DNA of 64,000 bases from Micromonospora inyonensis (GTDB taxonomy: Bacteria > Actinomycetota > Actinomycetes > Mycobacteriales > Micromonosporaceae): assembly GCF_900091415.1 (NCBI RefSeq), contig NZ_FMHU01000001.1, positions 1,240,001-1,304,000 of the forward strand, in the 5' to 3' direction. Of this stretch, positions 24,129-47,584 are shown in pieces. Made by a program: the position numbers and the translations under genes. Under the pieces are notes generated by a model. It ran no database searches. It was given only the letters and a program-made list of their open reading frames with translations, and was not told the origin of the DNA. How positions within the stretch are numbered: position 1 is the first letter of the stretch; each line of letters opens with the position of its first letter.

Positions 24129-24345
24129 GATCGCCGTCACCTGGATCGGACCCCGGCTCGGGCTACCGGCCGACCTGCCGGTCATCGACGTCGGGCACGG
24201 CGGCGTGCGGTTCGGTCGCCAGCTCAAGCTCGCCGCGCTGTACCGCGGCATCGGTGGACGGCCGGTGGCCGTCCTCGATGACGAGCTCGGCGGCCGGGAT
24301 CTGGTCGAGGCCGCTGACCGCACCGAGCTGAACGGCCGGTTCGTC
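24121..24345 (+). pseudogene. HAD-like protein fragment
   Basis: The plus strand reads TIAVTWIGPRLGLPADLPVI, DVGHGGVRFGRQLKLAALYR and GRPVAVLDDELGG, resembling the C-terminal half of small actinobacterial HAD-superfamily proteins (conserved K and the LDDE acidic motif). There is no start, and both ends merge into other genes: the IS1634 transposase on the left, the reductase on the right. It therefore appears to be debris caught between an IS and the 3' end of the biosynthetic reductase gene. The family call is moderate. Confidence 0.4.
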
Positions 24346-25428
24346 AATGCTGATCTTCGCCGCCGGATCCACGGAGAGGGCCTGGAAGATCTTGGTGGGC
24401 TTGAGCACGTTGGCCGCGAAGTGCACTCCTTCGGGTATCTCGCCCGCGAGTACCGCGTTCGTGGCTGCAGCCGCCAGGAATCCGCTGAGTTCGTAGGAGT
24501 CGTCGCAGGTCAGCGACAGGACGGCCGCCGGCGCCTCGGCATCGTCCCCGTTCCAGAGGTGGAACTCCTGGCCGTACCACGTGCCGTGTCGCCGTACGTC
24601 CTCGGCCGCAGCACTGACCAGGTCGGAGGTGTTCGTGTCTCGCAGCGCCCAGGACAGGGCCAGTTGCTCGGGGAGCCGGTCGCCCCCGAACGCGGTATAC
24701 CAGTTCACCTGGCTGAGCCGGAGCGCGCGAACGAGCCGGACGGCCTCGGTGGACAGGAAAGGAAAGGCGTCCACCGGCCGGGGAAAGGCGGCAAGTGACA
24801 GGCCTCGTCGGGGTACGAGGCTCCGTTCCCGGACGGTGCCGTCTCGCCAACTGGCTCCAGGCGTGCCGTGCTCGGGTCCGCGACTGAGCAGTACGTCCCC
24901 AGCCGCGGCCGGGGTCAGCGGCGCCACCCCGCCGAGGTAGGCGTCGAGCCGGGTGGCCTGTCCGGCGATGTTGGCCAGGTGACGCGGCAGGAGTCCGGAC
25001 AGGCCCGGGAGGGCCCCGGCGGACAGCAGGGCGATCCGTCCGGCCGCCAGCCATTCGTGGGCGCCACCGCCGCTGCTCAGGCGCAGGAACGTGGGATCGT
25101 CCCCGGCAGCGTCGACGTAGTCGGTGCCGTTGTGCAGCGCCGCTCGGGCAACGGTGTCGAGAACCCGGTACGACGGACCGGCGCAGTTGACGAGGAGGCC
25201 GCACCGGGCCGCGAACCGGTCGAGCGCGGCCGGGTCGGCGAGGTCGACCGCCACGGGCTCGGCGAGGGCGCTGCCCGTATCCAGCGAGCGGACAAGTTCC
25301 TCGGCCCGCCCGAGGTCGCGTCCGGCAATGAGGAGCGAGGCGGCCGTGCTCTGGTGCAGGCGGCGCGCGACCGCGCTACCAACGGCTCCGTAGCCTCCGA
25401 GGATGCCGATGGTCGTGGTGTCCCTCAT
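24163..25428 (-). CDS. NAD(P)-dependent reductase (saccharopine dehydrogenase-like), altered C-terminus
   Basis: 421 codons from ATG 25428. The N-terminus is a Rossmann fold (IGILGGYGAVGSAVARRL), followed by LLIAGRDLGRAEELV, the substrate region LLVNCAGPSYRVLDTVARAA and DGTDYVDAAGDDP-type motifs of the saccharopine-dehydrogenase NADP-binding family. Such enzymes in thiazoline NRPS clusters are candidates for reducing a ring imine, the job done by thiazolinyl imide reductases; this is inference. The family-like part ends near residue 361 (KPTKIFQALSVDPAAKISI). The last about 60 codons are antisense to a HAD-like fragment, so the native 3' end is probably lost or replaced. It is divergent from the flavoprotein gene at 25531 with a Fur/Zur-like palindrome between them. 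Confidence 0.75.
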   Translation of the reverse strand: MRDTTTIGILGGYGAVGSAVARRLHQSTAASLLIAGRDLGRAEELVRSLDTGSALAEPVAVDLADPAALDRFAARCGLLVNCAGPSYRVLDTVARAALHNGTDYVDAAGDDPTFLRLSSGGGAHEWLAAGRIALLSAGALPGLSGLLPRHLANIAGQATRLDAYLGGVAPLTPAAAGDVLLSRGPEHGTPGASWRDGTVRERSLVPRRGLSLAAFPRPVDAFPFLSTEAVRLVRALRLSQVNWYTAFGGDRLPEQLALSWALRDTNTSDLVSAAAEDVRRHGTWYGQEFHLWNGDDAEAPAAVLSLTCDDSYELSGFLAAAATNAVLAGEIPEGVHFAANVLKPTKIFQALSVDPAAKISIDEPAVQLGAVSGLDQIPAAELVIEDGHRPSTDAAVQRGELELATEPHAAVPDVDDRQVGR

Positions 25429-25468
25429 CGTGTGGGCCCCTTCGCTGGACACTGGCCAACTCGCTAGA

Positions 25469-25483
25469 TGATACTCATTGTCA
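25469..25483. promoter_or_regulatory. Fur/Zur-type box between divergent genes
   Basis: TGATACTCATTGTCA matches the 7-1-7 Fur-family box TGATAATNATTATCA at 12 of 14 fixed positions. It lies 41 bp before the reductase start and 48 bp before the flavoprotein start, so it could control both. Confidence 0.55.
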
Positions 25484-25530
25484 TTTTCGTTCGGACAATG
25501 AGTGCCGGCATGGCCGGCAAGGAGGATGCC

Positions 25531-26451
25531 GTGTACGACGTCATCGTGGTGGGCGGAGGGCCAGCCGGGCTCAACGCCGCTCTGGTATCGGGCCGACAGC
25601 GTCGGCGGGTGCTGGTTGTGGACAGTGGCAGCCCTCGCAACGCGCCGGCGGCCGAGATGCACATGTTTCTCAGTCGGGACGGCTTCTCCCCCGCCGAGCT
25701 GCGCAAGCTGGGCCGGGACGAGCTGTCGGCGTACCCGAGTGTGGAATGGCGGGAGGGCCGAGTCGACGGCGTCACGCGTACCGACGGCGGGTTCGTCGCG
25801 ACGCTGACCGACGGCCAGACGCACCGGTCCCGCAAGCTGGTGCTGGCAACGGGGCAGGTCGACCTCACCGACTCCGTTGACGGGCTCGCCGAACGGTTCG
25901 GGCGCGGCGTCTTCCACTGCCCGTTCTGCCACGGTTGGGAAACCCGGGGCATGACGCTCGCCGTCCTCGGCCACGAACTGCCGCAGGTCATGCAGGCGCT
26001 GTATGTCGCTGACCGGTTCAGCGACGACGTCGTCGTCTGCACGAACGGGCGCCCCGTCCCCGAACCCGCCGCGGGCCGACTCGCCGCCGCCGGCATCTCC
26101 GTACGCGAGGCGCCCGTCACCCGGATCGAGGGGGACGAGGGTGACCTGAGGCTGGTCTTCGCCGACGGCACGGTGCTCGAACGGCAGGCCATCTACCACC
26201 GGGCACCCACCCGCCAGCACTCCGCCCTGGCCGAGCAGCTCGGGTGTGAGCTGCTGCCGGACGGCTGCGTACGCGTGGACGAGTTTCAACGGACCTCCGT
26301 GCCCGGTGTGTACGCGGCCGGGGACACCGCCCGCCTGGCCGCGTTGCCCGACGCGCTGACGTTCGTCGTCACGGGCGCGGCCGACGGCGCGCGTGCCGCG
26401 ACCTGGCTGGACCAGGAGCTGTTCCGGGAGGATGCCGGACTGACTGGCTGA
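25531..26451 (+). CDS. Thioredoxin-reductase-like FAD/NAD(P) oxidoreductase
   Basis: 306 aa from GTG 25531. This start is chosen for the strong AAGGAGGA ending 4 bases upstream, after which VYDVIVVGGGPAGLNAAL begins the FAD-binding fold. A redox-active CxxC is present in HCPFCHGWE (about residue 130), and the second FAD motif GVYAAGDTARLA near residue 280. The protein is of the small single-chain TrxR-like type common in Actinobacteria, which includes dithiol oxidases such as HlmI and GliT as well as uncharacterised enzymes. Beside a thiazoline-type NRPS cluster it could act on thiols or rings, but no direct evidence shows this. It is divergent from the reductase, shares the putative metal box, and ends at a strong terminator. 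Confidence 0.85.
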   Translation: MYDVIVVGGGPAGLNAALVSGRQRRRVLVVDSGSPRNAPAAEMHMFLSRDGFSPAELRKLGRDELSAYPSVEWREGRVDGVTRTDGGFVATLTDGQTHRSRKLVLATGQVDLTDSVDGLAERFGRGVFHCPFCHGWETRGMTLAVLGHELPQVMQALYVADRFSDDVVVCTNGRPVPEPAAGRLAAAGISVREAPVTRIEGDEGDLRLVFADGTVLERQAIYHRAPTRQHSALAEQLGCELLPDGCVRVDEFQRTSVPGVYAAGDTARLAALPDALTFVVTGAADGARAATWLDQELFREDAGLTG

Positions 26452-26499: not shown

Positions 26500-26535
26500 G
26501 CCGTGGCGGGGCACCTCGCCCCGCCACGGCTTTTT
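26500..26535 (+). terminator. Rho-independent terminator
   Basis: A perfect 12-bp stem (GCCGTGGCGGGG / CCCCGCCACGGC) with a 7-base loop is followed by TTTTT, ending at the stop codon of the convergent NRPS gene. It serves the flavoprotein gene. Confidence 0.9.
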
Positions 26536-28553
26536 CACGATCCGATGCCGACGTTGTCGCCATGAGCGGCGGTTTCGGCCGTCTCGCGGACGGCGCTGGC
26601 GAGTCCCGCCACGCTGGGACGTTCGAGGAACCGACGTGGCGTCACCCGTCCGACCTCCTCCCGGGCAAGGGCACCGAGCATGCGTACCGCGAGCAGCGAG
26701 TCCCCACCGAGCCCGAAGAAGTCCGCGGCGCGGTCCGGCACCCCGCAGCCGAGCAGCGCAGTCCAGTGGCGCACGATCGTCCGTTCAAGATCGTCACGCG
26801 GCGGCCCGGGCTCATCGGCGGTCGCGGTTGGTGCGGTCGGCACGGACAGGCGGGTGCGCGACCGCACCTGCTCGGGCGCGTCCAAGGGGCCCGGCAGGGC
26901 GACCGGCACCGACCATGCCTCCGCGTCGACCAGAGACTCGATCATGGCCATGACGTCCCCGAACATCCGGTCCACGTCCGAGGCCTCGAAGAGTTCCTCC
27001 ACCAGGGAGAACACCACCACGAGCTCGTCGCGCAGCTCGAACAGCCGGACCTCGAGCGCCACCTGCGGCGTCCGCAACTGTTGGTAGTGGCTGGCCAGGT
27101 CGATGGAGCCCAACGGTCCGGCGGTACGGGGTACCTCACTGCCGAGAGCAGCGTCGACGCCCAGCGTGCTCTGGAAGACCACCGGTGCCACCGGCCGCCG
27201 GGTGTTGCGACGCCGCCCCAGCTCGCGGGACACCTCCACCCCGGTCACCAGGTTGTGCGCCATGGCCTCCCCGATGTCCCGCTGGGCGTGGATCGCAAGG
27301 TCGGAGAAGGCCGCCGATTCGGGTAACTCCACCGGTACCAGCATGGTGGAGGAGAAGGCGCCGACGAGCCGGGGCACGTCGGGGTGCAGCGGAAGGCGGT
27401 TCAGTTGCAGGGTGTTGAGCAGGAACCGTCGATGTCCGCAGGCCCGGGCCAGTGCCGTGGAGAACACGGCGAACATGGCGGCGGACGGCGTGACGCCGTG
27501 CTGGGCACAGTGACCCCGCAGCGTGGCCCACCGGTCCGCGTCCAGCACGGCCTGCCGTGCGCCCATCAGGATCGGACGGACGGCCGCCGGGTCGGCGGCC
27601 AGCGGCAGGGCTGGAGGGAGCGGCAGGTCGTCGAGCCGGTCCCACCACCAGTCGCGGTCGGCCTGCCACTGGTCGGTCCCGGACAACCCGTCCAGGGTCA
27701 CGGCGTAGTCGCCGAAATCGACATCCATCGGTGCGAGCATCGCGTTCTGGTCGCTGACCAGGGCGAACAGGTCCCGGTAGAACACTCCCGACGACCAGCC
27801 GTCAATGATCATCAGGCTGGTCGAGGAGTGCAGCCGTGCCTTGGCCCCCGGAAGCAGGGTCAGCCGCATGTCCAGACCACACCCCTGAGTCGGGTCGGGG
27901 CCATCGATGCTCATCTCGTGGCGGATCGTGGCCAGCGTCTCGGCGATCTCGTCCGCACCGGCGGCGCTGAGGTCGGTTACCCGCAGCACCGGTACGGCTT
28001 CCGGGTCGTCCAGCGGCAGGATCCGCTGCCGTCCGTCGGGCAGGATCCGCGCGCGTAGCACCGCCTGGTGCTCGGCGAGCCGTTCCAGGGCGTCCTGCAA
28101 CGCTTCGGCAATCTCGTCGACCTCGATGTCCTCCAGGCCGATGTCCACGTAGTGGTGAGCTGACCGGTAGGACAGTTCCCATCCGTCCTGCTGGCCGACG
28201 AAGTAACCCTGCTGAAGCGGGAGGAGAGGGAAGGGGGCCTCGGGGTCGTCCCGGCGTGCCAGCTCGAGCGGCAGCGGGCGCAGCGCACCCGTGGCGGTAC
28301 CTCGCTCGTGAATGAGGGTGGCCAGCTGGGCCGCACTGTGCTCGACGCGGACGTCGGCCAGGGCCAGGGCGGCACCGAGCCGCTGCCGGACCAGCGCTGC
28401 CATCCGTACCGTCAGGACGGAATCGCCGCCGAGGCTGAGGAAGCTGGCGTCGGCCGGTACTGAGATCACGTCGAGGTCCAGCACATTGGCCCAGACGGCA
28501 CGTACGGCGTCGATGAGTTCGGTCGGTGGGTTGAGGCCGGAGGAGTCGGTCAA
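26535..28553 (-). CDS. NRPS: carrier - cyclization/condensation - carrier
   Basis: About 672 aa from TTG 28553, which overlaps the TGA of the preceding gene and has GGGAG upstream; earlier in-frame starts lie inside that gene. Order: peptidyl carrier (LGGDSVLTVRM, about residue 45), a condensation-superfamily domain of Cy type (PLLPLQQGYFVGQQDG to about 520), and a second carrier (FFGLGGDSLLAVRM, near 615). There is no adenylation domain. The Cy signature D-x4-D-x2-S appears as SLMIIDGWS, so the first Asp is Ser. This matches the PCP-Cy-PCP end of yersiniabactin HMWP2, here a separate protein, presumably loaded in trans with cysteine by the single A domain of the cluster. Whether the altered Cy still forms rings is uncertain. 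Confidence 0.88.
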   Translation of the reverse strand: MTDSSGLNPPTELIDAVRAVWANVLDLDVISVPADASFLSLGGDSVLTVRMAALVRQRLGAALALADVRVEHSAAQLATLIHERGTATGALRPLPLELARRDDPEAPFPLLPLQQGYFVGQQDGWELSYRSAHHYVDIGLEDIEVDEIAEALQDALERLAEHQAVLRARILPDGRQRILPLDDPEAVPVLRVTDLSAAGADEIAETLATIRHEMSIDGPDPTQGCGLDMRLTLLPGAKARLHSSTSLMIIDGWSSGVFYRDLFALVSDQNAMLAPMDVDFGDYAVTLDGLSGTDQWQADRDWWWDRLDDLPLPPALPLAADPAAVRPILMGARQAVLDADRWATLRGHCAQHGVTPSAAMFAVFSTALARACGHRRFLLNTLQLNRLPLHPDVPRLVGAFSSTMLVPVELPESAAFSDLAIHAQRDIGEAMAHNLVTGVEVSRELGRRRNTRRPVAPVVFQSTLGVDAALGSEVPRTAGPLGSIDLASHYQQLRTPQVALEVRLFELRDELVVVFSLVEELFEASDVDRMFGDVMAMIESLVDAEAWSVPVALPGPLDAPEQVRSRTRLSVPTAPTATADEPGPPRDDLERTIVRHWTALLGCGVPDRAADFFGLGGDSLLAVRMLGALAREEVGRVTPRRFLERPSVAGLASAVRETAETAAHGDNVGIGS

Positions 28554-29980
28554 CGAGGTTCTCCCATCGTGGCGGTGAGCGGGGCGGGAATGACGCGGTC
28601 CACGGCGTGGACCCGTTCGGGACAATCGGCCGGCGGCATCCTGGCCGCGAGGGTCGCTGCGACGAGCACCGGATCCGGGCGTGGGACACCGGACCGGACC
28701 CGACCGGCGATCACCCGCTGGCCCGCGTCCGCCAGCGGGTGGCCGTTACCGGGCAGGACCGGCAGTGGATCGAATCCGGCCGCATCCAACTGGTCGGCCC
28801 ACGCCGCCGCGCTGAGGAACACCTGGTCCTGTCCGGCCCGCAGGTCGGTGAACCACCGCCGTTCGTCGACGGCGGGTGACATGAGCAGGTACATAGAGGT
28901 GAGCGCCTGGTAGTGCTCGCGACAGGACTCGACGAGCACCAGCAGCCCGTCGGGGGAGAGCAGTTCCCGTAGCGCCGCCAGGGCCCGACCGACGTGGCGG
29001 GCGTTGTGCAGGACGTTCGCGGCCAGGATGACGTCCCGGGACCCGGGCGTGAATTCCGGGCCGGCCGGCGGCAGGTTGACGTCGAACAGGCCGAACCGCA
29101 GCCCCGGACGGTCACCGAGGAGCGTCCGCGCCGAGGTGAGGAAGAAGCGCGACACGTCGGTGAACAGGTACTCGATCTTGGCGTCGGCCAGTGCATCGAG
29201 GACCGGCCGGGTGGTCGCCCCGATCCCGGCGCCCACCTCCAGGATCCGCAGCGGACCGTCCGACCGGGCGGTTCGCGAGTAGCCGGCGATCATCGCCGCC
29301 GCCGCGTGGTTGGCCCAACGGCTGGGCAGGTTGTCCCGGTAGTTCCCCTCGGCCGTGTCGGTGGAACCATCCGGGAACAGCAGCTCCTGCACCCCGGCCT
29401 CGTCCCGTAGCAGGGCCGGCAGCCGGTCGGCCGTAGCCAGGAAGAACCGGGTCATCGAGGGGGGATAGCCCAAGCCGCGACGCGCCTCGTCGAGTTCCCG
29501 CCGGGCCCGGGCGTACCCGACGCGGTCCGGCGCGACGAGATCGTGGTACCTACCGGTCCGCGCGTCGTGGCCGAGCCGTCCCTCGGCGAACAGCGTGGCC
29601 AGCCACCGGCGCACGATCCAGGCATGCCGCGGCGCGACGCCCAGCACGCTCAGCACCTGTGCCGTGTCGTGGGCCGCTCCGTCCCGGAAGAGCCGCGCCC
29701 GGTCCAGCACCCGGGCCATCGAGAGCAGTGCGACCTCGTCCAACAGACGGGTCAGTGGGGGGAGGGCGGACAGGTCCGCCCCGGCTACGGCCGCGTCCCC
29801 GGCGGCGGATGCCGCCTCTCCTTCGGCGGCGGCCCGCCGATTCACGTCCGGATCCACCCGCCCGGTGGTGCCGGCGGCGGGACCGGCGACCAGCAATGTG
29901 CCCCGCCCGGGTCCCGGAACCCACTGCCACGCGCCCACCCCGGGCAGATCCGACAGGGCGTCGAACGGCGGGGCGCTCAC
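28550..29980 (-). CDS. SAM methyltransferase, PKS/NRPS C-MT type
   Basis: 476 aa, starting at a GTG that overlaps the stop of the preceding gene by four bases. A class I SAM-binding site is visible as ILEVGAGIGATTRPVLDAL at about residue 245, with YLFTDVSRFFL as the acidic post-motif and DVILAANVLHNARH downstream. About 200 residues precede it (LLSMARVLDRARLF, then NLPSRWANHAAAAM), a layout seen in C-methyltransferase domains embedded in assembly lines such as HMWP1. Here it is a separate protein, so it probably methylates carrier-bound intermediates in trans. The methylated position cannot be read from sequence. Confidence 0.8.
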   Translation of the reverse strand: MSAPPFDALSDLPGVGAWQWVPGPGRGTLLVAGPAAGTTGRVDPDVNRRAAAEGEAASAAGDAAVAGADLSALPPLTRLLDEVALLSMARVLDRARLFRDGAAHDTAQVLSVLGVAPRHAWIVRRWLATLFAEGRLGHDARTGRYHDLVAPDRVGYARARRELDEARRGLGYPPSMTRFFLATADRLPALLRDEAGVQELLFPDGSTDTAEGNYRDNLPSRWANHAAAAMIAGYSRTARSDGPLRILEVGAGIGATTRPVLDALADAKIEYLFTDVSRFFLTSARTLLGDRPGLRFGLFDVNLPPAGPEFTPGSRDVILAANVLHNARHVGRALAALRELLSPDGLLVLVESCREHYQALTSMYLLMSPAVDERRWFTDLRAGQDQVFLSAAAWADQLDAAGFDPLPVLPGNGHPLADAGQRVIAGRVRSGVPRPDPVLVAATLAARMPPADCPERVHAVDRVIPAPLTATMGEPR

Positions 29981-39100: not shown

Positions 39101-42100
39101 GCAGGGCCACGGCGGCCGAGACTTTGGCCCGCGCGTGGCCATGTGCCACCTCGGGGTCGACGGCCCGCAGCGGGACGACCGCCGTCGAGGCGACCACGCC
39201 CGCGCCGTGTACCACGAGGTCCACGCGGCCGAACCGGTCGACGACATCGCGCAGCAGCGCCGCTGTGGCCGTAGGGTCCCCGGCGTCGATCGCCCGTACC
39301 TCCACCGGCAGACCCCGCTCGGTCAACCGTCGGATCGCCGCGACCCGCTCGGCCGCCGGGCTGCCCGGCGGCGGGTCCGGTACGAGGCCGGTACGGCCGG
39401 TGACGACGACCTGCCAACCCCGCTCGGCCAGGTGTTCGGCCATGGTGAGACCGACGTCGCCCAGCCCGCCGATGAGCAGGGCGGTGCCCGCGTCCGTCCG
39501 GTCCTCCGGTCCGTTGGTGCGGGGGCGCCACGGGTTCAGGGTGCGCAGCCAGCGCTGTGTGCCGCGCAGTGCCACCTCCGCCCCGGCACGCCCGCCGGCC
39601 GTCAGGTCCGTCGCCTCCTGCGCGACCCGACGGGCCAGATCGGCCGGCGACCCGGCCGTCGGCAGGTCGATGGTGCGCCACCGCAGGCCGGGGAATTCCT
39701 GCGCCAGGATCCGGGGTACGGCGGTACCGGCGGCGCCGGCCGGATTCGGCCGGTCCGCGCTCTCCACCTGCTGGACGGCCCGGGTGACGTGCAGCAGGCA
39801 GGTGTCGTGTGCCCAGGTGGCGGTGAGGCGGGCCAGTTCGGCGTGGCGCAGGACCGTCTCGACCACCCGCCCGGCGGGGTCGTCGCCGTCCGGGGCGAGG
39901 TCGAGGACGAGCACACCGGCGCACGGGACCGTCGGGTCGGCGGCGACCTCGGCCCGGTCGGTCACCCGGGCGCCGGCGGCGGACAGGTGTGCCCGCACCG
40001 CCTCGACCAGAGGGTCGTCGTCGGGGCCGTCCAGCAGCCAGCGACCGGTGACGACCGGTGGGCCGTCCGGCGCCGGTACGCGCTGCCAGACCGGCAGTTG
40101 GAAGGGTTCGTCCTCGTCCGGCGCATCCGTCGCGGATCCGGCGTCCGGCTCGGGCTGGTCGATCCACAGCGGGCGCCGGTCGAACGGGTGGCCGGGCAGC
40201 GCCACCCGCCGCCGACCGGGCCGGTGCAGAGCCCCGGCGATGATCCCCACCCCCCGGGTCCAGAGTTCACCGGCGGCGGTCAGCAGTGCCGCCCGTTCGC
40301 CGCCGGGCTCGTCCGGCTCCGGAAACGTGGCGATGGTCGCCACGAGGTTCGCCGTCCGGTGCCGGCGGGCGAGTTGCAGCAAACCGCCGCCGGGTCCGGC
40401 CTGCACGACGACGGCCGGCCAGTTACCGATGGCCGTCGTCAGCGCGTCGGAGAAGCGCACCACCGACCGCAGGTGCGGTACCCAGTGGTCGGCGTCGGGC
40501 GCGGACGTGAGGAATTTGCCGGTGAGGGTGGTGGCCAGCGGCACCAGCGGGGTTTGCGCGTCCACCCTCGAGGCGGCGGCCCGTAGTTCGGGTAGGACGG
40601 GATCCACGAGTCGGGAGTGGGCGGCGGCGTCCAGCCGCAGCCGGGTGGGTTCCAGGCCGTCCGCGGCCAGCCGTGCCTCCAGCGCGGCCACCGCGGGTTC
40701 GGGCCCGGAGACCACGCAGGAGTCGGGTGCGTTGACGGCGGCCAAGTCCAGTTCGGGGTGGTCGGCCAGCAGCGCCGTGACCGCGGGTTCGGCCAGTGGC
40801 ACGGCCAGCATCGCGCCCTGTCCGGCGGTCCGGGACATACCACGGGAGCGGACCCGCACCAGGGCCGCCGCGTCCGCTACCGGCAGCGCGCCGGCCACCA
40901 CCGCCGCGACGTACTCACCGAGGCTGTGGCCGACCACCACGTCCGGTCGTACGCCCCACCGGATGAGGACCCGGGCGGTGGCGAGGGACACGGTGAACAG
41001 CGCGGGCAGGCCATACGCCGGGTCGCGGGCGAGCCGCAGCGCGGCCGGGTCGGCGCGGTCGGCCTGGATCAGCTCGACCAGCCGGGGCTGGCCGGGTTCG
41101 TCGAACAGTGCCGCGCACTCCCGTACGGTGTGGGCGAACTCCGGCTCGTCGGCCATGAGCTCGCGGCCCATGCCCGGGTACTGGGCACCGCCGCCGGGGA
41201 ACGCGAGCACGACCCGGGGGGCGGTGGCGCCCACCGCGCGGCGGGCCGCGGTGTGCAGGGCAGCCCGGTCGGCGGCGCGTTCGCCGGTGACGACCGCCGC
41301 GGCGCGACAAGGCCGGGCCGGGCGTCCCTCGTGCAGGGTGTACGCGACGTCGGCCGGCGCGGCCGCCGTGCTGTCCAGTGCGTCGGCGGTTGCCGCGACG
41401 CTGGTGGCCAGGGCCTTGTCACTGCTGGCGGACAGCAGCACCAACTGCGGGCGCGGGTCGGGGGCGGGGGCGCGCCCGGCGGGTGCGCTGCCCAGCACGA
41501 CGTGGCAGTTCGTACCGCCGATGCCGAACGAGCTGACGCCCGCGTACCGCGGCCCGGGCCAGTCCGTGGTCCGGCCGGCGACGGTGAACGGTGAGCCGTC
41601 CAGGTGCAGTTCCGGGTTGAGCGGCTCGGCGTCCAGGGAGGCCGGAAGGATCCCGTGGTGCAGGGCGAGCACGGTCTTGGCGAACCCGGCGATGCCGGCA
41701 GCCGAGTTGGCGTGCCCGATGTTGCTCTTCACCGAGCCGAGGGCGCACCAGGCCGGGCCCGTGGAGCCGAACACCCGGCGCAGCGCGCCGACCTCCACGA
41801 CGTCGCCGAGACGGGTCGCGGTGCCGTGCGCCTCGACGTAGCTGACCTGGCGGGCGTCCACGCCGGCCACGGCCAGCGCCTCGGCGATCACGCGTGCCTG
41901 GCCGCGCGGGGACGGTGCGGTGAAGCCGGTCTTGTCCGCGCCGTCGTTGTTGACCGCCGAGCCGTACAGCACCGCCAGCACCGGATCGCCGTCGGCGAGA
42001 GCGTCGGCGAGCCGACGCAGGACCGCGACACCGACCCCCTGGGAGTGAACGATCCCGGTGCCGTCGGCGGAGAACGTGCGTACCCGGCCGTCGATGGAGA

Positions 42101-42785
42101 AGATGCCGTCCGGAACGTACAGGTATCCCAGGCCCTGAGGCACGATCAGCGACGCGCCTCCGGCCAGCGCGGTGTCGCACTCGCCGGCCAGCAACGACTG
42201 GGCGGCCAGGTGCACGGCGACCAGCGAGGTGGAGCAGGTGGTGTTGACGGCGATCGCCGGCCCGGTCAGCCCGAGGCGGTGAGCGACCTGAAGGGGAAGG
42301 TAGTCCCCGACGGTCGCCATCGCCGTCTGGAGACTGCCGACCGGGTCACTGGCGGACGAGGTGTAGCGGTGGGCCAGGTTACGCATCAGATAGTCGCTGT
42401 GTGCCGCCCCGGCGAACACCCCGACGGCTCCGGCCCCGATCCCGTTGCCGTGCCCGGCGGCTTCCAGGGCACGCCAGCACGCTTCCAGGAACAGCCGCTG
42501 CTGCGGATCCATGAGCGCGGCCTCGGCGTCGCTGAGCCCGAACGGCTCGGGATCGAACTGGTCCTGGCCGTCGATGACGCCGCCGACCGGGACGTACGCG
42601 GGATGCTCGCGCAACCGGCGGGGTACCCCTCGCTCGGCGAGGTCCTCGGGGATGTGCCGGGTGAGGCCGTGCCGTTCGGACACCAGCAGGTCCCAGAACG
42701 CGGGGGTGTCGGGCGCGCCGGGGAAGCGACAGTCCAGAGCGGTGACGGCGATCGACGATTCGGCCGGGTTGTCCGCCCCGCTCAC
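36138..42785 (-). CDS. Hybrid PKS/NRPS: KS-AT-KR-ACP-Cy-TE
   Basis: 2,215 aa from a GTG overlapping the upstream stop. KS about 1-430 (active Cys in NTTCSTSLVAVHL near 184, His in EAHGTATRLGD and SNIGHANSAAG). AT about 520-820 (GHSLGEYVAAV; AAHS in place of the usual HAFH or YASH, so extender choice is unclear, malonate likely). KR about 1100-1290 (LLIGGLGDVGLTMAEHLAER, then SSATTLVGGLG and APYAAANRYLDALAER). ACP near 1400 (FFALGGHSLLATRM). Cy about 1470-1900 with an intact D-x4-D-x2-S (DVLVCDTAS). TE about 1960-2215 (GGWSMGGTLAHEM). This is HMWP1 of yersiniabactin without its methyltransferases and without the carrier between Cy and TE. That carrier must come in trans or be missing. The product chain would get one ketide with a beta-hydroxyl and one more cysteine-derived ring. 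Confidence 0.92.
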   Translation of the reverse strand: MSGADNPAESSIAVTALDCRFPGAPDTPAFWDLLVSERHGLTRHIPEDLAERGVPRRLREHPAYVPVGGVIDGQDQFDPEPFGLSDAEAALMDPQQRLFLEACWRALEAAGHGNGIGAGAVGVFAGAAHSDYLMRNLAHRYTSSASDPVGSLQTAMATVGDYLPLQVAHRLGLTGPAIAVNTTCSTSLVAVHLAAQSLLAGECDTALAGGASLIVPQGLGYLYVPDGIFSIDGRVRTFSADGTGIVHSQGVGVAVLRRLADALADGDPVLAVLYGSAVNNDGADKTGFTAPSPRGQARVIAEALAVAGVDARQVSYVEAHGTATRLGDVVEVGALRRVFGSTGPAWCALGSVKSNIGHANSAAGIAGFAKTVLALHHGILPASLDAEPLNPELHLDGSPFTVAGRTTDWPGPRYAGVSSFGIGGTNCHVVLGSAPAGRAPAPDPRPQLVLLSASSDKALATSVAATADALDSTAAAPADVAYTLHEGRPARPCRAAAVVTGERAADRAALHTAARRAVGATAPRVVLAFPGGGAQYPGMGRELMADEPEFAHTVRECAALFDEPGQPRLVELIQADRADPAALRLARDPAYGLPALFTVSLATARVLIRWGVRPDVVVGHSLGEYVAAVVAGALPVADAAALVRVRSRGMSRTAGQGAMLAVPLAEPAVTALLADHPELDLAAVNAPDSCVVSGPEPAVAALEARLAADGLEPTRLRLDAAAHSRLVDPVLPELRAAASRVDAQTPLVPLATTLTGKFLTSAPDADHWVPHLRSVVRFSDALTTAIGNWPAVVVQAGPGGGLLQLARRHRTANLVATIATFPEPDEPGGERAALLTAAGELWTRGVGIIAGALHRPGRRRVALPGHPFDRRPLWIDQPEPDAGSATDAPDEDEPFQLPVWQRVPAPDGPPVVTGRWLLDGPDDDPLVEAVRAHLSAAGARVTDRAEVAADPTVPCAGVLVLDLAPDGDDPAGRVVETVLRHAELARLTATWAHDTCLLHVTRAVQQVESADRPNPAGAAGTAVPRILAQEFPGLRWRTIDLPTAGSPADLARRVAQEATDLTAGGRAGAEVALRGTQRWLRTLNPWRPRTNGPEDRTDAGTALLIGGLGDVGLTMAEHLAERGWQVVVTGRTGLVPDPPPGSPAAERVAAIRRLTERGLPVEVRAIDAGDPTATAALLRDVVDRFGRVDLVVHGAGVVASTAVVPLRAVDPEVAHGHARAKVSAAVALRRALADLPEGTRPATVLLMSSATTLVGGLGLAPYAAANRYLDALAERLGAHGGTVWLSVAWDGWRVGPGGAERAVASRHSIGRRDGMRSLDRLLALAGRGRAPALVAVSPADLRPRLVGGTTEVQRPAAPIGRDVPAEGADPRGNAEATLARIWSELLGFEVSDRDADFFALGGHSLLATRMLARLRDEHGVQLRLQDLLARPTVASLAVLLAGADGPGPAGDAGPSADADTHVGTEFEDAGPDAEGPREFPLTRVQHAYWVGGSGGYRLGDVPCSFHLEHDCPGLDVGRYEDAWNAVIARHPMLRAIITPEGRNRILDRVPRYRIRVRDLSTLDEATRQEKLARIRAEMVGREPRPGRWPLVDIRAARLPGGTVRLFVNVDVLVCDTASFLLWDREVRARYEDPAARLPRVGTTFAACVAALEQRARGPERNRAADYWRSRLDRLPGAPALPVRPAPPGTRPRFARRAARLEPPQWQALRAEAARRGLTPTAVLLAAYADALAAWSGQGRFAITLTLFDRPRVHPDVDLVVGDFTSLLLHEVDRSRPGTFAGDAAEAQRTLFRDLDHREFSALELLAEKSARSGRTESVPVVFTSALGLTDALGGEHDLDWMGTPVYGVSSTPQTWLDHQVIEQHGALLLQWDVLADVLPADEADQVFAAYVDRVRRLAGTAEEWQAPRPARSAVAGQPAEAATGRGETALLLRAGAAKPPLFLIHPSGGDVLCYGELVRLLTDDRPVVGLTDPALTGGVEPEDIPALAEHYLDAVRTYQPHGPYLLGGWSMGGTLAHEMACVLERRGGSSALLFMVDSNTPDRIRALHGPGVPGAVAALRYLHSLEAFLDLDFGLGPAEEAELLGGTGDEVRAYVTERLRHAGLLNARDSADLRLRVFERHLRTLGEHRAGHLSDPDTRLLLIRAALPSPRNSGVGMGVDDAPDLPVLGWRGHVRGPVHEVVVEGHHYSLLTGDAAKTIAGHLDQALAALPNTLR

Positions 42786-45700
42786 CGGTCGACCTCCTGA
42801 GCTCGGGTACGGGCGGCCAGCCGGGACGAGCGTCGGGCCGATGGTGGCGCCGAAGTGTCCGCCGGCTCGTGTGTTCGTGGGTCTTGCGTGGCGGCCAGGG
42901 CGGTGATGTGTGCGGCGAGGGAGGCGACCGTGGCATGGCCGAACACGTCCGCGAGTGCGAGTCGCGGGGCGATGCTCTCGTGCAGCCTGCGGTAGGTGAG
43001 CACGAGCGTGAGCGAGGTCGCGCCCACCGCGGCGAACGTGCTGTCCGGCCGCACTAATTCTCCGGTCAGGTCGGTGAGGACCGCGATGACCGCATCGGTG
43101 ATGGCGGGGTCCGCCGGATGCATCCCTCCGGCGACCTGGTGACCTGCGGGCTCCGGCTCGGGCCGTTCCGGGGCCGCAGCTGCCGGTTGCGTAACCGTGG
43201 CGGGTTGCGGGACCGGGGAGGTGTCAGCGGCCGGCGACGGATCAGTGTGTCGGTACGCGAGTTCGATGAGACCATCGGCGGGAATCCGTTCGACCAGGGT
43301 GACGGCGTGTGCGCTACTCCCGGCGTGGACCCGCTCGAGCCAGCGTGCCGACGCGACGAGGGCCCGCGCCGGTGAGAGCCGTCCCGGACGTACGACGAGT
43401 GCGGTCTCCAGGCCGAGCGCCGCCGCCTCGGCGATCGCCGGGCCGACCCAGTCCGGGCCGTTCGGGGCGGGCGCGGGCGGCGTGGCTGCGGGTTGCGGCG
43501 GTTGGGTGACCGGCGGGGCATCCTCGATCCGGTACGGGTTCGGCAGCGCCGCGTGGTCGATCTTGCCGTTCGGGGTGACCGGCAGCGACTCCAGCACGAG
43601 GAACCTGCTCGGGACCATGTAGTCGGGCAACCGTTCGCGCAGCGTCTCGGCCAGTTCACCGGCCGGCGGTGCGGCATGTCCCGCCTTGGGCACCACGTAC
43701 GCGGCCAGGCGGGGCCGCTCATCCGGGCCGGCCACTGCGGCCACGACGCACTGCCGCAGGCCCGAATGCCGACTGAGCGTGGCCTCGATTTCGCCGAGTT
43801 CGATCCGGTGTCCGCGGATCTTCACCTGCCGGTCGACGCGTCCCAGGAACTCGATGTTCCCGTCGTCCCGCCAGCGTCCCAGGTCTCCTGTGCGGTACAG
43901 TCGCTCGCCCAGCACCGGGTGCCGGGCGAAGCGGTGCGCCGTCTGCTCCGGATCGCCGATGTATCCCCGGGCGAGCCCATCGCCGCCGATGAACAGCTCG
44001 CCCGGCTCGCCCACCGGGCACGGGCCACCGTCCGGGTCGAGGATGTGGAAGGACTGGCCCCGCAGTGCCCGGCCGTAGGGAATGCTCCGCCACTGCGGGT
44101 CGACATCCGCCACCGGGTAGGTGATCGACCAGATGGACGCCTCGGTCGCGCCGCCCAGGCTCATCACCCGTGCCTGCGGAGCGAGCCGACGCAGCCGGTC
44201 GGGGAGGGTCAGCGGGATCCAGTCGCCGGAGAGCATCACCAGCCGTAGGGTGCGCAGGGCCCGACCGGCCGCCTCCGGCTCGATCTCGGCGTACTCGACG
44301 AGCATCTCCAACAGCGCGGGGGCCGTGTTCCAGACCGTGACACCGTGCCGTTCGGCGAGTTCCAGCCAGTGTTGCGGATCACGCTGTCGAACCGGGTCGG
44401 GCAGGACCAGCGCGCCACCGGCGCCGAGAACACCGTAGATGTCGAAGACGGAGAGGTCGAAGCTGAGCGCGGACAGGGCCAGCACCCGGTCACCGGAGTT
44501 GACGCCGAAACGGTCGACGATGTCGTCGATGGTGGCGCGCGCGGCCCGGTGCTCGATCTCGACGCCCTTCGGCTGGCCGGTGGATCCGGAGGTGAAGATG
44601 ACGTACGCGGTGGCGTCGGGGTCGGGTCGCGACTGCGGCGGCGTGGCCGGCCCGGACACGACTTCCCCTGCTCGGGCGCTGGGCCGCCCGGACGCGGTCA
44701 GGCGGTGCGGTATGACGCCCCCGGGCCACCCGGTCCGTACGCCCCGGCCGACCAGCGCGTGCCGCACTCCGGCACGCGCGCAGATCGCGGCCACGCGGGC
44801 GTCGGGCCAGGATGGCTCGACCGGCAGGTAGCCCGCGCCGACGGCGTTGACGGCCAGGACCGCGGCGATCTGGGCCGGTCCCTTCTCACCGGCCACCGCG
44901 ACCAGATCGCCGGCCCGGACACCGGCCGTGACCAGAGCGGCGGCGGTCGCCGCGACGTTCTCGGCCAGCCGCCTGTGCGAGGTCGCCGAGCCGCCCGCAT
45001 ACAGGGCCGGGTACTCAGGCACGCGGCGGGCGGCGTTGGACACCGGATCGTGCAGCAGCGGACCGCTATCGGGGAAGGGCTCGACGTCCAGGGGCTCCAC
45101 CGGAAGGACGAAGGGGTCCCAGGCAAGGCTCGGGTCCTTCCAGGCAGCGGCCTCGGTGAGCCGGTGCAGCAGCCGGAGGTACGCGTCGAGCATGCCGCGC
45201 AGGTAGCCCTCGGGAAAGGCGCCGACGACCGCGTCCCAGGCGACCCGAAGCGAACCGCCCTCGTCCCACACGATGTGGTCCAGCAGCACCTGAGGGGTCT
45301 GCGAGACGCCGAAGACCTCCTCGCCGAGCCAACTCGCGGGGGCTGCCGCGTCGCCGGCGAGTCCCACCCCACTCGTGAACACCACCGGGTAGGGCGGCGC
45401 GCCGGAGGCGTGGCCGAGCTGCCGCAGCACCTCCACCCCGGAGACCGACCGGTGGTCCAGGTCCTCCCAGAACCGGCGGTTGAGATCCGTCGCGTACCCG
45501 GCGAACCCGCTCCACGAGGCCGGGTCGAATCTCGGGGTACCCACCAGGGCGGTGGTGGTGAAGTCGCCCACCACCAGGTCGATACCCTCGGGGCTCTCCG
45601 GTCGGTCGAAGAGTGTGGTGTTCAGGCACACCTGGTCGCCGGCGCCCCACCGCCCGAGGACCACCGCGAACGCGGCCAGCAGGGCCGCCGTTGGCGTCAC

Positions 45701-46732
45701 CCCGTGCTCGCCGCACCGGGTGCGTAGCGTCCGCCAAGTTTCGGCGTCGAGCCCGCCGGCGTGCCGGGCGAAGCGGGGAGGCTCGGTGGAGTCGGCGGCG
45801 CGGGTCACCGGCAGGCCTGGCGCCGGAGGAAGCTCCGGACCGCGGGCCGCCCAGTAGGCCCGGTCGCGCTCGCGCCGCTCGGTCCACTCCGAATCGACCG
45901 CCCGGGCGCGCAGCAGGTCGGTGAAGTCAGCGGGAGGTTCGGGCAGGGACGCGGCGAGGTCGGCGACGAGTTGTCCCCACTGACGCATGAGCAGCATCCA
46001 GCCGGCCATGTCGGTGACCAGCACGTCGACCCCGACGAAGAGGCGCGTGCGGCCGTCGGGCAGAAACGCCGCGTGCAGGTCGAACAACGGCCACTGGCCG
46101 GCGGCGCGTACCTGGTGGGAGCGGTCGTACCGGACCATGGCCAGCATCTCGGCCACCTGTGTGGGCGCCGCGTCGCGCAGATCGGTGACGCCGATGCGGT
46201 ACGGACCGACTGAGGGCAGGATCTGCCCGCGGCCACGCTGGTCGACCACCATCCGCAGCATCGGGTGGTGGTCGACCAGTCGGTTCCAGGCGACTTCGAG
46301 CCGCTGGAGGTCCGCGGCCGCGTCGTCGCTGCCCCGGTCGAATTCGTAGTAGTAGAAGGTCGCCACCCCGCCGAGAACCAGACCAGACTCCCGCCCGACA
46401 AGGTAGGACTCCTGAACCGGAGTCAAGGGAAAGACCGACGGGTCCTCCGGCTGCCGGCTGGTGGCAGGAGTGCTGAGCAGTTGCCCGGCGGGCGCCGACA
46501 AGTGCCGGGCGAGGTCCAGTGCGGTTGCGTTGTCGAGAAATGCCGTCAGCGGAAGGTCGTGTCCGGTGCGCTCCCGGATCCGGCGGCGGAGCCGTACGGC
46601 AGTGAACGACTCCAGACCCAGGGCCGTCAGCGCTGTTTCCGCGTCAAGCAGCCCTGGGTCCGTGCCGAGCACCTCGGCGATGCAGTCGAGTACGTCGTCG
46701 AGGGCTGCTTCGGGCTTCAGGGGCAGGTTCAT
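42782..46732 (-). CDS. NRPS: carrier - Cy - A(Cys) - carrier
   Basis: 1,316 aa from ATG 46732 (GGAG about 9 bases upstream), not from an earlier in-frame start at 46795, which overlaps the promoter. Order: carrier (LGLESFTAVRL, Ser near 42), Cy domain about 95-530 with D-x4-D-x2-G (DVLVTDMAG), A domain about 575-1065 (FTSGSTGQPKGVE, YRTGDLGRW, NGKIDH). Its pocket motifs FDLSVFDIYG, SGDWIPLTLPD and GGATEASIWSI are those of cysteine-activating A domains, close to the code DL(F/Y)NLSLI. About 75 unassigned residues flanked by Pro/Ala-rich linkers follow, then a second carrier (VGATSLTLVLTYRR). It resembles HMWP2 cut after its first PCP. The first carrier would hold the starter acid. It is first in the long operon and follows a promoter covered by a palindromic operator. 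Confidence 0.92.
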   Translation of the reverse strand: MNLPLKPEAALDDVLDCIAEVLGTDPGLLDAETALTALGLESFTAVRLRRRIRERTGHDLPLTAFLDNATALDLARHLSAPAGQLLSTPATSRQPEDPSVFPLTPVQESYLVGRESGLVLGGVATFYYYEFDRGSDDAAADLQRLEVAWNRLVDHHPMLRMVVDQRGRGQILPSVGPYRIGVTDLRDAAPTQVAEMLAMVRYDRSHQVRAAGQWPLFDLHAAFLPDGRTRLFVGVDVLVTDMAGWMLLMRQWGQLVADLAASLPEPPADFTDLLRARAVDSEWTERRERDRAYWAARGPELPPAPGLPVTRAADSTEPPRFARHAGGLDAETWRTLRTRCGEHGVTPTAALLAAFAVVLGRWGAGDQVCLNTTLFDRPESPEGIDLVVGDFTTTALVGTPRFDPASWSGFAGYATDLNRRFWEDLDHRSVSGVEVLRQLGHASGAPPYPVVFTSGVGLAGDAAAPASWLGEEVFGVSQTPQVLLDHIVWDEGGSLRVAWDAVVGAFPEGYLRGMLDAYLRLLHRLTEAAAWKDPSLAWDPFVLPVEPLDVEPFPDSGPLLHDPVSNAARRVPEYPALYAGGSATSHRRLAENVAATAAALVTAGVRAGDLVAVAGEKGPAQIAAVLAVNAVGAGYLPVEPSWPDARVAAICARAGVRHALVGRGVRTGWPGGVIPHRLTASGRPSARAGEVVSGPATPPQSRPDPDATAYVIFTSGSTGQPKGVEIEHRAARATIDDIVDRFGVNSGDRVLALSALSFDLSVFDIYGVLGAGGALVLPDPVRQRDPQHWLELAERHGVTVWNTAPALLEMLVEYAEIEPEAAGRALRTLRLVMLSGDWIPLTLPDRLRRLAPQARVMSLGGATEASIWSITYPVADVDPQWRSIPYGRALRGQSFHILDPDGGPCPVGEPGELFIGGDGLARGYIGDPEQTAHRFARHPVLGERLYRTGDLGRWRDDGNIEFLGRVDRQVKIRGHRIELGEIEATLSRHSGLRQCVVAAVAGPDERPRLAAYVVPKAGHAAPPAGELAETLRERLPDYMVPSRFLVLESLPVTPNGKIDHAALPNPYRIEDAPPVTQPPQPAATPPAPAPNGPDWVGPAIAEAAALGLETALVVRPGRLSPARALVASARWLERVHAGSSAHAVTLVERIPADGLIELAYRHTDPSPAADTSPVPQPATVTQPAAAAPERPEPEPAGHQVAGGMHPADPAITDAVIAVLTDLTGELVRPDSTFAAVGATSLTLVLTYRRLHESIAPRLALADVFGHATVASLAAHITALAATQDPRTHEPADTSAPPSARRSSRLAARTRAQEVDR

Positions 46733-46800
46733 CCGGTCTCCGTAGCTGCGATGGCAGTGTGGAGCGTTCCGCCGGGAGGACGGCGGGCGGCGCACCGGGA

Positions 46801-46829
46801 ACCATAGTTGAAAATGAAAGCCGTTTCAA
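46801..46829 (-). promoter_or_regulatory. NRPS operon promoter overlapped by metalloregulator-like palindrome
   Basis: On the minus strand -35 TTGAAA (46829-46824) and -10 TATGGT (46806-46801) are separated by 17 bp. A palindrome TTGAAA-N10-TTTCAA (46808-46829) covers the -35 and spacer, as for a repressor of the Fur/Zur kind. The start codon is about 70 bp downstream. The site also overlaps the stop codon of the upstream methyltransferase gene. Confidence 0.6.
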
Positions 46830-47584
46830 TCTTGGTGTCGAAGTTGCCCCCCGGTACGGATCGCGACGTACAGCCCGGCGTCGGGATGGCCGACTTGCCG
46901 CGTGGTCAGCCCGTGCTCGGTGAGCTCCTTGCTGAGCTCCGCCTCGTCCATGACCCACCAGTCGTAGTCCACGGTCACTTCGGACACCGGCCGCCCTTCC
47001 GCCCGTTGGACGAGGTAGGTCATGTGCCACCTGACCCGGTGTTCACCCGCGACCTCGGCGCTCGCCCAGCCTTCGTAGGTCAAGTCGCCCACGCTGCTGC
47101 TGGCCATCCGGCTTCTGGTGATACCGACCGGGCGCGTCGGCGGGGAGAGGTTGAGGATCACACGACCTCCGGGAATCAGCCGGGGTACGATCCGCCGCCA
47201 CAGCTCCCGCCGGTCGTCCGGCGACAGGTGCCCGATCATGTTCATGGCCACCAGCGCCCGTATGCGCTCAGGGAGCGGGGTGTTCAGCGCGTCGGTCGGT
47301 GAGACGGTGACGCGCGCCCGCAGGTGCGCGTCACCGTGCGCTCGGGCGAGGAGCACCGCGCGGAGGGTGGGCGAGGGCTCGACGGCAAGGACCGGTGAGT
47401 TGTCAGGTAGGGCGGCACAGATCGTCTCCACTCCGCGTCCCGTGCCGGCGCCCAGGTCCACGGTGACGTCGGTCTCGCCACTGAGGCCACTCAGGGCCTC
47501 GACGAGTCCGGGAGCGAAGAGCCCCCAGGCGTCGGCGATGAGGATGTCCATGTACTCGGCTGATCGTGCGTACGGATCGTCCAT
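46826..47584 (-). CDS. SAM-dependent methyltransferase, class I
   Basis: 252 aa from ATG 47584, chosen for GAGGA just upstream. SAM-binding motif I is VTVDLGAGTGRGVETI near residue 45, with VLAVEPSPTLRAVLLAR next and ALVAMNMIGHLSPDDRREL later. It is a small soluble Methyltransf_11/25-type enzyme, unlike the two assembly-line-derived methyltransferases of the operon. It lies just upstream of the NRPS operon in the same direction and has its own Fur/Zur-like palindrome 25 bp before the start codon, so co-regulation with the cluster is likely. Substrate unknown; it could modify the starter or finished product. Confidence 0.8.
   Translation of the reverse strand: MDDPYARSAEYMDILIADAWGLFAPGLVEALSGLSGETDVTVDLGAGTGRGVETICAALPDNSPVLAVEPSPTLRAVLLARAHGDAHLRARVTVSPTDALNTPLPERIRALVAMNMIGHLSPDDRRELWRRIVPRLIPGGRVILNLSPPTRPVGITRSRMASSSVGDLTYEGWASAEVAGEHRVRWHMTYLVQRAEGRPVSEVTVDYDWWVMDEAELSKELTEHGLTTRQVGHPDAGLYVAIRTGGQLRHQD

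What the first reader, a model, noticed from the sequence alone, without database searches (positions are those of the whole stretch)
24163..47584. A taken-apart yersiniabactin-like NRPS/PKS cluster, probably for a thiazoline metallophore
Domains in HMWP1/HMWP2 order are present but split: carrier-Cy-A(Cys)-carrier, KS-AT-KR-ACP-Cy-TE and carrier-Cy-carrier, with methyltransferases and a reductase as separate proteins. Cys-specific A motifs and three Cy domains predict several cysteine-derived rings and one ketide. The organisation differs from pyochelin, yersiniabactin and coelibactin as I know them.
Basis: partly seen in the sequence, partly recalled or inferred. Interest (0 to 1): 0.8.

Follow-up and report, generated by a model that had tools for sequence, protein, structure and literature searches.

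The report
Zinc-scavenger assembly line, one ring skipped
A Micromonospora-like bacterium carries a gene cluster, shared with other actinobacteria, that encodes a cysteine-using assembly line plus an import pump and likely makes and retrieves a zinc-scavenging molecule; one of its three ring-forming domains has lost its ring-closing residues in all 60 near relatives that could be read, so it is predicted to leave a cysteine open.

Summary
The interpretation needs two corrections. (1) Only two Cy domains keep the T-D cyclodehydration dyad; the third (Cy*) has Gln in 59 and Glu in 60 of 60 readable relatives, so fewer rings and one open cysteine are predicted. (2) It is not a damaged yersiniabactin cluster but one form of a family found at 66 loci in 20 named genera; fused relatives give the order KS-AT-KR-ACP-Cy-CP-Cy*-CP-TE. 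The metal is most likely zinc: Zur-box-like sites are enriched at core gene starts, iron-box-like sites are not, and the window has one at 25469-25483. Salicylate synthase is absent from 10 of 12 relatives' genomes; the starter is unknown, perhaps cysteine. The closest described system is the C. diphtheriae sid locus, product unidentified in the paper seen. Product, metal and Cy* chemistry are untested.

The parts
46826..47584 (-). MTc, small SAM methyltransferase (ATG at 47584)
   Evidence: Pfam Methyltransf_25/12; weak NCBIfam match to daptide methyltransferase, 39.6 bits against a cut-off of 175
42782..46732 (-). N1: carrier - Cy1 - A(Cys) - linker - carrier; likely ATG at 46732 in ORF 42782-46795
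   Evidence: Pfam; 6lta (FmoA3), PchE and BmdB best in PDB; A code DLFNLSLIWK; Cy1 T-D dyad intact in 26 of 26 readable rows, window included
36138..42785 (-). PKS: KS - AT - KR - ACP - Cy2 - TE
   Evidence: Pfam; active-site motifs present; Cy2 T-D dyad intact in 15 of 15 rows, window included
34550..36313 (-). SBP: family-5 (NikA/OppA-type) solute-binding protein; real start probably downstream of 36138
   Evidence: PF00496, 260 bits; below the NikA and CntA cut-offs
32803..34620 (-). PERM: permease of the Opp/Nik class; one long ORF whose second part matches BPD_transp_1
31346..32866 (-). ATP: two fused ABC ATPase domains (NikE/NikD-like, below cut-offs)
29977..31398 (-). MTb: stand-alone methyltransferase related to one inside an NRPS
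   Evidence: only PDB match 5wmm, an NRPS, E 6e-37
28550..29980 (-). MTa: stand-alone PKS-type C-methyltransferase
   Evidence: CurJ, DisA and AprA methyltransferases in PDB; His of NVLHNA conserved in the 61 of 66 loci where MTa was found
26535..28553 (-). N2: carrier - Cy* - carrier (672 aa); Cy* lacks the T-D dyad and the first Asp of DxxxxD
   Evidence: Cy fold retained in the model
25498..26451 (+). TRX: HlmI/DepH/GliT-type FAD disulfide oxidoreductase with CPFCHGWE
   Evidence: PF07992; 4ntd, DepH 4nte/4jn9 and GliT 4ntc in PDB
25469..25483 (+). Zur-box-like site TGATACTCATTGTCA between RED and TRX
   Evidence: 1 of 11 specified positions off the S. coelicolor motif; 3 mismatches to TGAAAATNATTTTCA, expected 0.01 in the window
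24163..25428 (-). RED: reductase of the saccharopine/carboxyspermidine dehydrogenase fold (ATG at 25428)
46809..46823 (+). possible degenerate Zur site upstream of N1 (one good half site)
   Evidence: 3 of 11 positions off; weak alone; a site with at most 1 mismatch lies before N1 in Salinispora L115 and in G224 L096
47615..47629 (+). possible degenerate Zur site upstream of MTc
   Evidence: 3 of 11 positions off; weak
22401..24347 (-). flanking DDE transposase, left edge
   Evidence: PF01609
47915..52255 (+). flanking transposase/integrase-like genes, right edge
   Evidence: rve (below cut-off), HTH_32 and rve_3

Best explanation
This is a conserved actinobacterial gene cluster that encodes a split cysteine-activating NRPS/PKS assembly line, three methyltransferases, two redox enzymes and a nickel/peptide-type ABC importer, and it likely makes and retrieves a cysteine-derived zinc metallophore under predicted control of the zinc repressor Zur. 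Proposed working (inferred from domain order and homology): the single A domain loads cysteine on several carriers; Cy1 closes the first thiazoline, which RED would reduce and MTb would N-methylate; KS-AT-KR-ACP adds one ketide, which MTa would C-methylate; Cy2 adds and cyclises a second cysteine on the first carrier of N2; Cy*, which has lost the cyclodehydration dyad, would only couple a further cysteine on the second carrier and leave it open with a free thiol; TE releases the chain; TRX would oxidise the thiol(s) to a disulfide for storage or export; the metal complex would return through SBP-PERM-ATP. The starter on the first carrier is unknown; cysteine itself is the simplest choice. Shown: domains, order in fused relatives, residue losses, conservation, Zur-like sites. 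Inferred: metal, product, every reaction.
For: Domains. Order: in four fused relatives (Saccharothrix L064, Lentzea L068, Amycolatopsis L078, Brevibacterium L084) one protein maps to PKS (KS to Cy2), then N2 (carrier-Cy*-carrier), then TE. Loss of cyclisation residues in Cy*: HMWP2-Cy2 T1830 position Q in 59 and L in 1 of 60, D1862 position E in 60 of 60, first Asp of DxxxxD S in 61 and N in 3 of 64; Cy1 and Cy2 dyads intact in 26 of 26 and 15 of 15 rows. Dyad mutations severely affected cyclodehydration (PMC9547227, passages), and Cy domains that couple cysteine without closing a ring are proposed for pxb (PMC9396620, passages). Zinc: S. coelicolor Zur motif tGaNNatSatNNtCa (PMC5472717, passages); 58 sites with at most 1 mismatch in 1.66 Mb of cluster loci, 34.9 per Mb against 4.0 in Markov sequence; in L029-L094, 19 of 42 sites lie at core gene starts that cover 8.0% of bases (p 1e-10); a recalled iron-box (IdeR/DmdR) consensus is not enriched there (2, 6 and 42 sites at up to 4, 5 and 6 mismatches against 0, 3 and 38 in one Markov copy) and its best match in the window has 7 mismatches. 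Zinc-linked neighbours among 80 loci: CobW GTPase in 10, FUR family in 4, L28 in 3 (Pfam on one or two examples each), ZnuA in two Salinispora genomes. TRX family; CxxC in 43 of the 43 loci where TRX was found. A like locus, sid with nik transporters of C. diphtheriae, is Zur-regulated and listed among loci that support growth in low zinc (PMC6711530 and PMC12445094, passages).
Against: No product is known to me for any member. Zur boxes resemble other Fur-family boxes, and C. diphtheriae sid is also iron-regulated. Of the 42 Zur-like sites 23 are not at a core gene start, and only 15 of 66 loci have one that is. The control with unrelated NRPS loci is small: 0 sites in 0.10 Mb where the cluster rate would give about 3.5. 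In the window two sites have at most 1 mismatch (Markov mean 0.1) and one of them, at 3685, is inside a coding region. The host genome has a salicylate synthase and an aryl-AMP-ligase-like gene in another NRPS region, which could supply a starter. In sorangibactin the thiazoline reductase role is assigned to SrbI, an Irp3-like protein, while the PF03435 protein SrbE has no known function (PMC10127202, passages), so RED as thiazoline reductase is a guess. RED is seen in 36 of 47 and TRX in 34 of 47 loci of at least 21 kb. In a wider set some fused relatives have S at the first Asp but H-D, A-D or even T-D dyads (8 of 119 rows), so the loss is graded outside the near family.
Confidence: 0.55

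Rival explanations
1. An aryl-capped siderophore of the yersiniabactin/pyochelin type, with salicylate supplied from another locus and iron as the metal.
For: Domain similarity to PchE, HMWP2 and EpoB; the host has a salicylate synthase (469 bits, over the cut-off) and a DHB-AMP-ligase-like gene (626 bits, below the cut-off of 723.55) at C2 1.24-1.27 Mb; starter supply across clusters is known for ecteinamines (recalled).
Against: Those genes lie in a region with its own condensation domains. Among 12 relatives' genomes salicylate synthase over the cut-off is absent in 10, and in 6 no hit to the aryl-AMP ligase model exceeds 227 bits while the other 6 have 464-690, none over the cut-off. Among the ORFs called in 80 cluster loci none besides N1 was a best match to N1 (ORFs open at a contig end were not called). 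Iron-box-like sites are not enriched.
Confidence: 0.15
2. Cy* is a structural or docking relic: the chain is passed on or released without a further cysteine, giving a two-ring product.
For: Loss of the dyad and of the first Asp; in the split form TE is already fused behind Cy2.
Against: The carrier-Cy*-carrier protein is conserved: in 26 aligned homologues both GGDS carrier motifs and many Cy* positions are invariant, the Cy fold is retained in the model, and the changed dyad is itself nearly fixed as Q-E, which fits a new task better than decay.
Confidence: 0.2
3. A metallophore for copper, nickel or cobalt, imported by a nickel-type transporter, with the Zur-like sites reflecting another Fur-family regulator.
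For: SBP and permease are nearest to nickel/oligopeptide models; ecteinamines of Micromonospora bind Ni, Co, Zn and Cu (recalled).
Against: A NikA/OppA-type transporter, CntABCDF, imports staphylopine, a zincophore (PMC6711530 passage); sites fit the Zur motif, and some relatives sit with ZnuA, CobW and L28 genes.
Confidence: 0.15

Closest known systems
Corynebacterium diphtheriae sidAB - cdtPQ - dip2162-2165 (nik) locus
   Same: NRPS plus PKS plus NikA/OppA-type ABC importer, regulated by zinc and Zur, listed among loci supporting growth in low zinc (PMC6711530, PMC12445094; passages). Three proteins named Corynebacterium (P0162, P0165, P0170) carry the fused PKS with the S/Q/E signature of Cy*.
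   Different: SidA and SidB themselves were not compared. The window's form is split, with stand-alone methyltransferases, RED and TRX, and no CdtPQ-type pair among the genes scanned. sid is also DtxR/iron-regulated. Its product was unidentified in 2019.
Yersiniabactin (HMWP2/HMWP1, Irp) system
   Same: Cys-activating Cy-A module, one KS-AT-KR-ACP ketide step, Cy after ACP, TE (Ybt layout recalled).
   Different: No aryl starter genes in the window genes scanned, one Cy fewer in N1, Cy* after Cy2, methyltransferases in trans, a different reductase family, NikA-type importer instead of YbtPQ.
Piscibactin/photoxenobactin (pxb)
   Same: Ybt-like line in which late Cy domains are proposed to couple cysteine without closing a ring (PMC9396620, passages).
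   Different: pxb Cy4 has the first Asp of DXXXXD (it was mutated there); here dyad and Asp are lost as a family trait. pxb uses salicylic acid.
Coelibactin and sorangibactin clusters
   Same: Coelibactin genes are Zur-regulated (PMC5472717); both clusters contain a PF03435 oxidoreductase (SrbE); sorangibactin has tandem N-methyl-thiazolidines (PMC10127202, passages).
   Different: Both have a P450 and a Cys-type TE, and sorangibactin a phenol and an Irp3-like SrbI; here the TE is Ser-type (GGWSMGG), with a PKS module and no P450 among the genes scanned.
HlmI / DepH / GliT dithiol oxidases
   Same: TRX is nearest to 4ntd (HlmI by recall), DepH and GliT in PDB and has the CxxCHG[WYF]E motif.
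   Different: Beside a Zur-type metallophore-like cluster rather than a dithiolopyrrolone, romidepsin or gliotoxin cluster (those recalled); activity untested.

Membership tests
Yersiniabactin-type synthetase | Cysteine-specific Cy-A-PCP module | tested here: met
   Domains, code DLFNLSLIWK
Yersiniabactin-type synthetase | HMWP2 order ArCP-Cy-A-PCP-Cy-PCP | tested here: not met
   N1 is CP-Cy-A-CP; the longer order is seen in the Saccharothrix relative L123
Yersiniabactin-type synthetase | Aryl starter: salicylate synthase and aryl-AMP ligase in the cluster | tested here: not met
   None among the window genes scanned; none called in 80 loci beside N1
Yersiniabactin-type synthetase | Irp3/PchG-type thiazolinyl imine reductase (Gfo/Idh/MocA fold, recalled) | tested here: inconclusive
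   RED is nearest to saccharopine/carboxyspermidine dehydrogenases; a like role is not excluded
Functional heterocyclization (Cy) domain, for Cy* of N2 | DxxxxDxxS motif and T-D dyad | tested here: not met
   S/N....DGWS in 64 of 64 and Q/L-E in 60 of 60 readable relatives
Cy fold, for Cy* of N2 | Overall fold of Cy domains | tested here: met
   AlphaFold model pLDDT 82.4; TM by target 0.89-0.90 to BmdB Cy 5t3e, 0.88 to HMWP2 Cy2 7jtj
Zur-regulated metallophore (zincophore) | Zur box in cluster promoters | tested here: met
   by sequence only, in the window one good site, in L029-L094 15 of 66 loci; no binding test
Zur-regulated metallophore (zincophore) | Zinc binding and zinc-dependent growth effect of the product | not testable with these tools
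   Needs chemistry and mutants
Coelibactin/sorangibactin family | P450 and Cys-type TE (as described in PMC10127202) | tested here: not met
   TE motif GGWSMGG; no P450 among the window genes scanned
HlmI/DepH/GliT dithiol oxidase | TrxR-like FAD protein with CxxC | tested here: met
HlmI/DepH/GliT dithiol oxidase | Oxidises a product dithiol | not testable with these tools
   Enzyme assay needed

The most novel reading that the evidence does not exclude
A widespread actinobacterial class of thiol-switched zincophores: a converted Cy domain (T-D to Q-E) stops ring closure and leaves an open cysteine thiol, a HlmI-type oxidase caps the thiols as a disulfide for export, and reduction exposes a zinc-binding dithiol. 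The first carrier is also loaded with cysteine, so the molecule needs no aryl group and could escape genome-mining rules built on aryl starters.
Probability: 0.25. Interest if true: 0.85.

Novelty: new variant of a known kind. Interest (0 to 1): 0.6.

Why it matters
Zinc metallophores are few, and isolation of coelibactin has failed (PMC10127202 passage). If this reading is right, at least 20 named actinobacterial genera share an unrecognised zinc-acquisition molecule, and its enzymes are ready for test: a natural Cy domain whose dyad is rewritten from T-D to Q-E would show what separates condensation from cyclodehydration, a mechanism that the abstract of PMC9547227 calls unknown. It would also offer a model for the orphan Zur-regulated sid locus type of corynebacteria.

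Tried and rejected
Broken or pseudogenised Ybt cluster: rejected, frames open and gene set conserved. RED fused to PKS: two fused PKS proteins (P0168, P0174) carry a precomputed PF03435 label, but RED does not match them by BLAST, so no fusion is claimed. AMP ligases: G224, the closest unnamed relative, has three AMP-ligase ORFs (27-29% identity to the A domain) outside the core genes; a thiolase-like ORF stands nearby (read by eye); not tested further. Weak Zur-like sites before N1 and MTc in the window are not counted as evidence. In the 58-site count some of the loci L029-L101 and L115-L128 overlap, and sites shifted by 6 bases were counted apart. Gene presence used identity thresholds that I set, in loci cut by flanks and contig ends; in loci of at least 21 kb: MTa 47, PKS 38, RED 36, TRX 34, PERM 33, SBP 30, MTb 29, ATP 28, N1 13, MTc 11 of 47; the low N1 count goes with 10 kb flanks, since N1 was found in 12 of 12 whole genomes. 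Rows dropped: 2 of 66 loci (first motif) and 6 of 66 (dyad) do not reach the site; of 27 N1 rows 2 lack the DxxxxD and 1 the dyad, 1 of 120 listed proteins gave no row. The ecteinamine paper is not held, so that cluster was set aside from memory only. Searches for a product of this cluster type; titles and abstract starts read, none named one; most subscription papers are not held.
Full report
WHERE. The window is G000:C1:1240001-1304000 of a 6.92 Mb genome. The nearest named proteins are from Micromonospora, and for RED also Salinispora, and the closest whole genome, G224, is of the same genus group, so it is a Micromonospora-like actinomycete; the species is not told.

OBSERVATION. Pfam confirms carrier-Cy-A-carrier (N1), KS-AT-KR-ACP-Cy-TE (PKS), carrier-Cy-carrier (N2), three methyltransferases and a PF03435 reductase. 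Between PKS and two of the methyltransferases lie a family-5 solute-binding protein, a permease ORF and a double ATPase, nearest to nickel/oligopeptide models but below their equivalog cut-offs. On the plus strand between RED and N2 is TRX, whose best PDB matches are 4ntd, DepH and, after two further entries, GliT. The unit is flanked by transposase-type genes on both sides.

THE THREE CY DOMAINS. HMWP2-Cy2 has a putative catalytic dyad T1830/D1862, and dyad mutations in Cy domains severely affected cyclodehydration (PMC9547227, passages). I placed these numbers on the aligned HMWP2 sequence by counting. Cy1 and Cy2 keep T and D in 26 of 26 and 15 of 15 readable rows, window included. In N2 the Thr is Gln in 59 of 60 (Leu in 1), the Asp is Glu in 60 of 60, and the first Asp of DxxxxD is Ser in 61 and Asn in 3 of 64 (66 loci examined, the rest cut off). 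In a wider list from a Brevibacterium query, 43 of 119 proteins read Q-E; 64 read T-D, 4 H-D, 3 A-D and 5 otherwise, and 8 of these have Ser at the first Asp without Q-E (best local match only, one of 120 listed proteins gave no row). So N2 holds a separate, conserved Cy-derived domain, Cy*, with possible intermediates further out. Its model keeps the Cy fold. The inference is condensation without ring closure, as proposed for late Cy domains of pxb (PMC9396620, passages).

ORDER. In L064, L068, L078 and L084 one protein of 2705-2880 residues aligns first with PKS from KS to Cy2, then with N2 from first to second carrier, then with the TE end of PKS. This gives KS-AT-KR-ACP-Cy2-CP-Cy*-CP-TE and makes N2 the missing carrier pair of the split PKS. 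The relative L123 also has a longer N1, CP-Cy-A-CP-Cy-CP, like HMWP2, so two architectures exist.

ZINC. S. coelicolor Zur binds tGaNNatSatNNtCa (PMC5472717, passages). In cluster loci I found 58 sites with at most one mismatch in 1.66 Mb, 34.9 per Mb; Markov sequence gave 4.0 per Mb, and 0.10 Mb of unrelated NRPS loci gave none where 3.5 would be expected at the cluster rate. In L029-L094, 19 of 42 sites, in 15 of 66 loci, fall at core gene starts, windows that cover 8.0% of bases (p 1e-10); the loci are related, so p overstates independence. An iron-box consensus (recalled) is not enriched: 2, 6 and 42 sites at up to 4, 5 and 6 mismatches against 0, 3 and 38 in one Markov copy, and none under 7 mismatches in the window. 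In the window TGATACTCATTGTCA lies between the starts of RED and TRX. Neighbours among 80 loci include a CobW GTPase in 10, a FUR-family gene in 4 and L28 in 3 (Pfam of one or two examples each), and a ZnuA gene in two Salinispora genomes (L043 and L116 are one genome, L091 the other). Their link to zinc is recalled, apart from znuABC and ribosomal paralogues, which PMC5472717 names.

STARTER. No aryl-AMP ligase or salicylate synthase is among the window genes scanned. Ten of 12 relatives' genomes lack a salicylate synthase over the cut-off, and 6 of 12 lack any aryl-AMP-ligase hit above 227 bits. The host genome itself has both kinds, elsewhere. Cysteine on the first carrier is the simplest guess and is untested.

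COMPARISON. The best match in print by description is the C. diphtheriae sid/nik system, regulated by zinc and Zur and also by iron, product unidentified in 2019 (PMC6711530, passages) and called a putative metallophore locus in 2025 (PMC12445094, passages). Corynebacterium-named homologues of the fused PKS carry Cy*, but SidB itself was not compared. I file the cluster as a new variant of Ybt-like metallophore lines, not as yersiniabactin: the architecture and starter tests were not met.

VERDICT. Observation confirmed; zinc metallophore likely; ring count revised; product unknown.

Noticed in passing
window 8329-21468 (-): Open frame of 4379 codons with arrays of about 112-residue winged-helix-like repeats (336-339 bp periods) separated by Pro/Gly-rich stretches.
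   Followed up: partly
window 3089-6568 (+): 1159-aa protein with an N-terminal SMI1/KNR4 (SUKH) domain and two AAA ATPase domains.
   Followed up: no
window 3685-3699: A second Zur-motif site with one mismatch, inside a coding region.
   Followed up: no
G000:C2:1241714-1277452: Another NRPS region in the host with a salicylate synthase, an aryl-AMP-ligase-like gene and several condensation domains.
   Followed up: no
L043:14609-21884 (Salinispora vitiensis): Downstream of the orthologous cluster: a MerR/phosphatase-like ORF, two secreted-type proteins without Pfam call or not scanned, and a ZnuA-type protein.
   Followed up: partly
proteins P0163, P0164, P0167, P0168, P0180, P0183, P0184, P0193: Fused or long relatives with half-changed dyads (H-D, T-D or A-D with the first Asp already Ser), a possible series of steps from Cy to Cy*.
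   Followed up: no
L076:7561-8895 and six further loci: A FAD monooxygenase-like gene recurs near the cluster, mostly in Actinomadura-type loci.
   Followed up: no
window 53411-54565 (+): Protein with a RibD C-terminal domain followed by a cytidine-deaminase-like domain.
   Followed up: no
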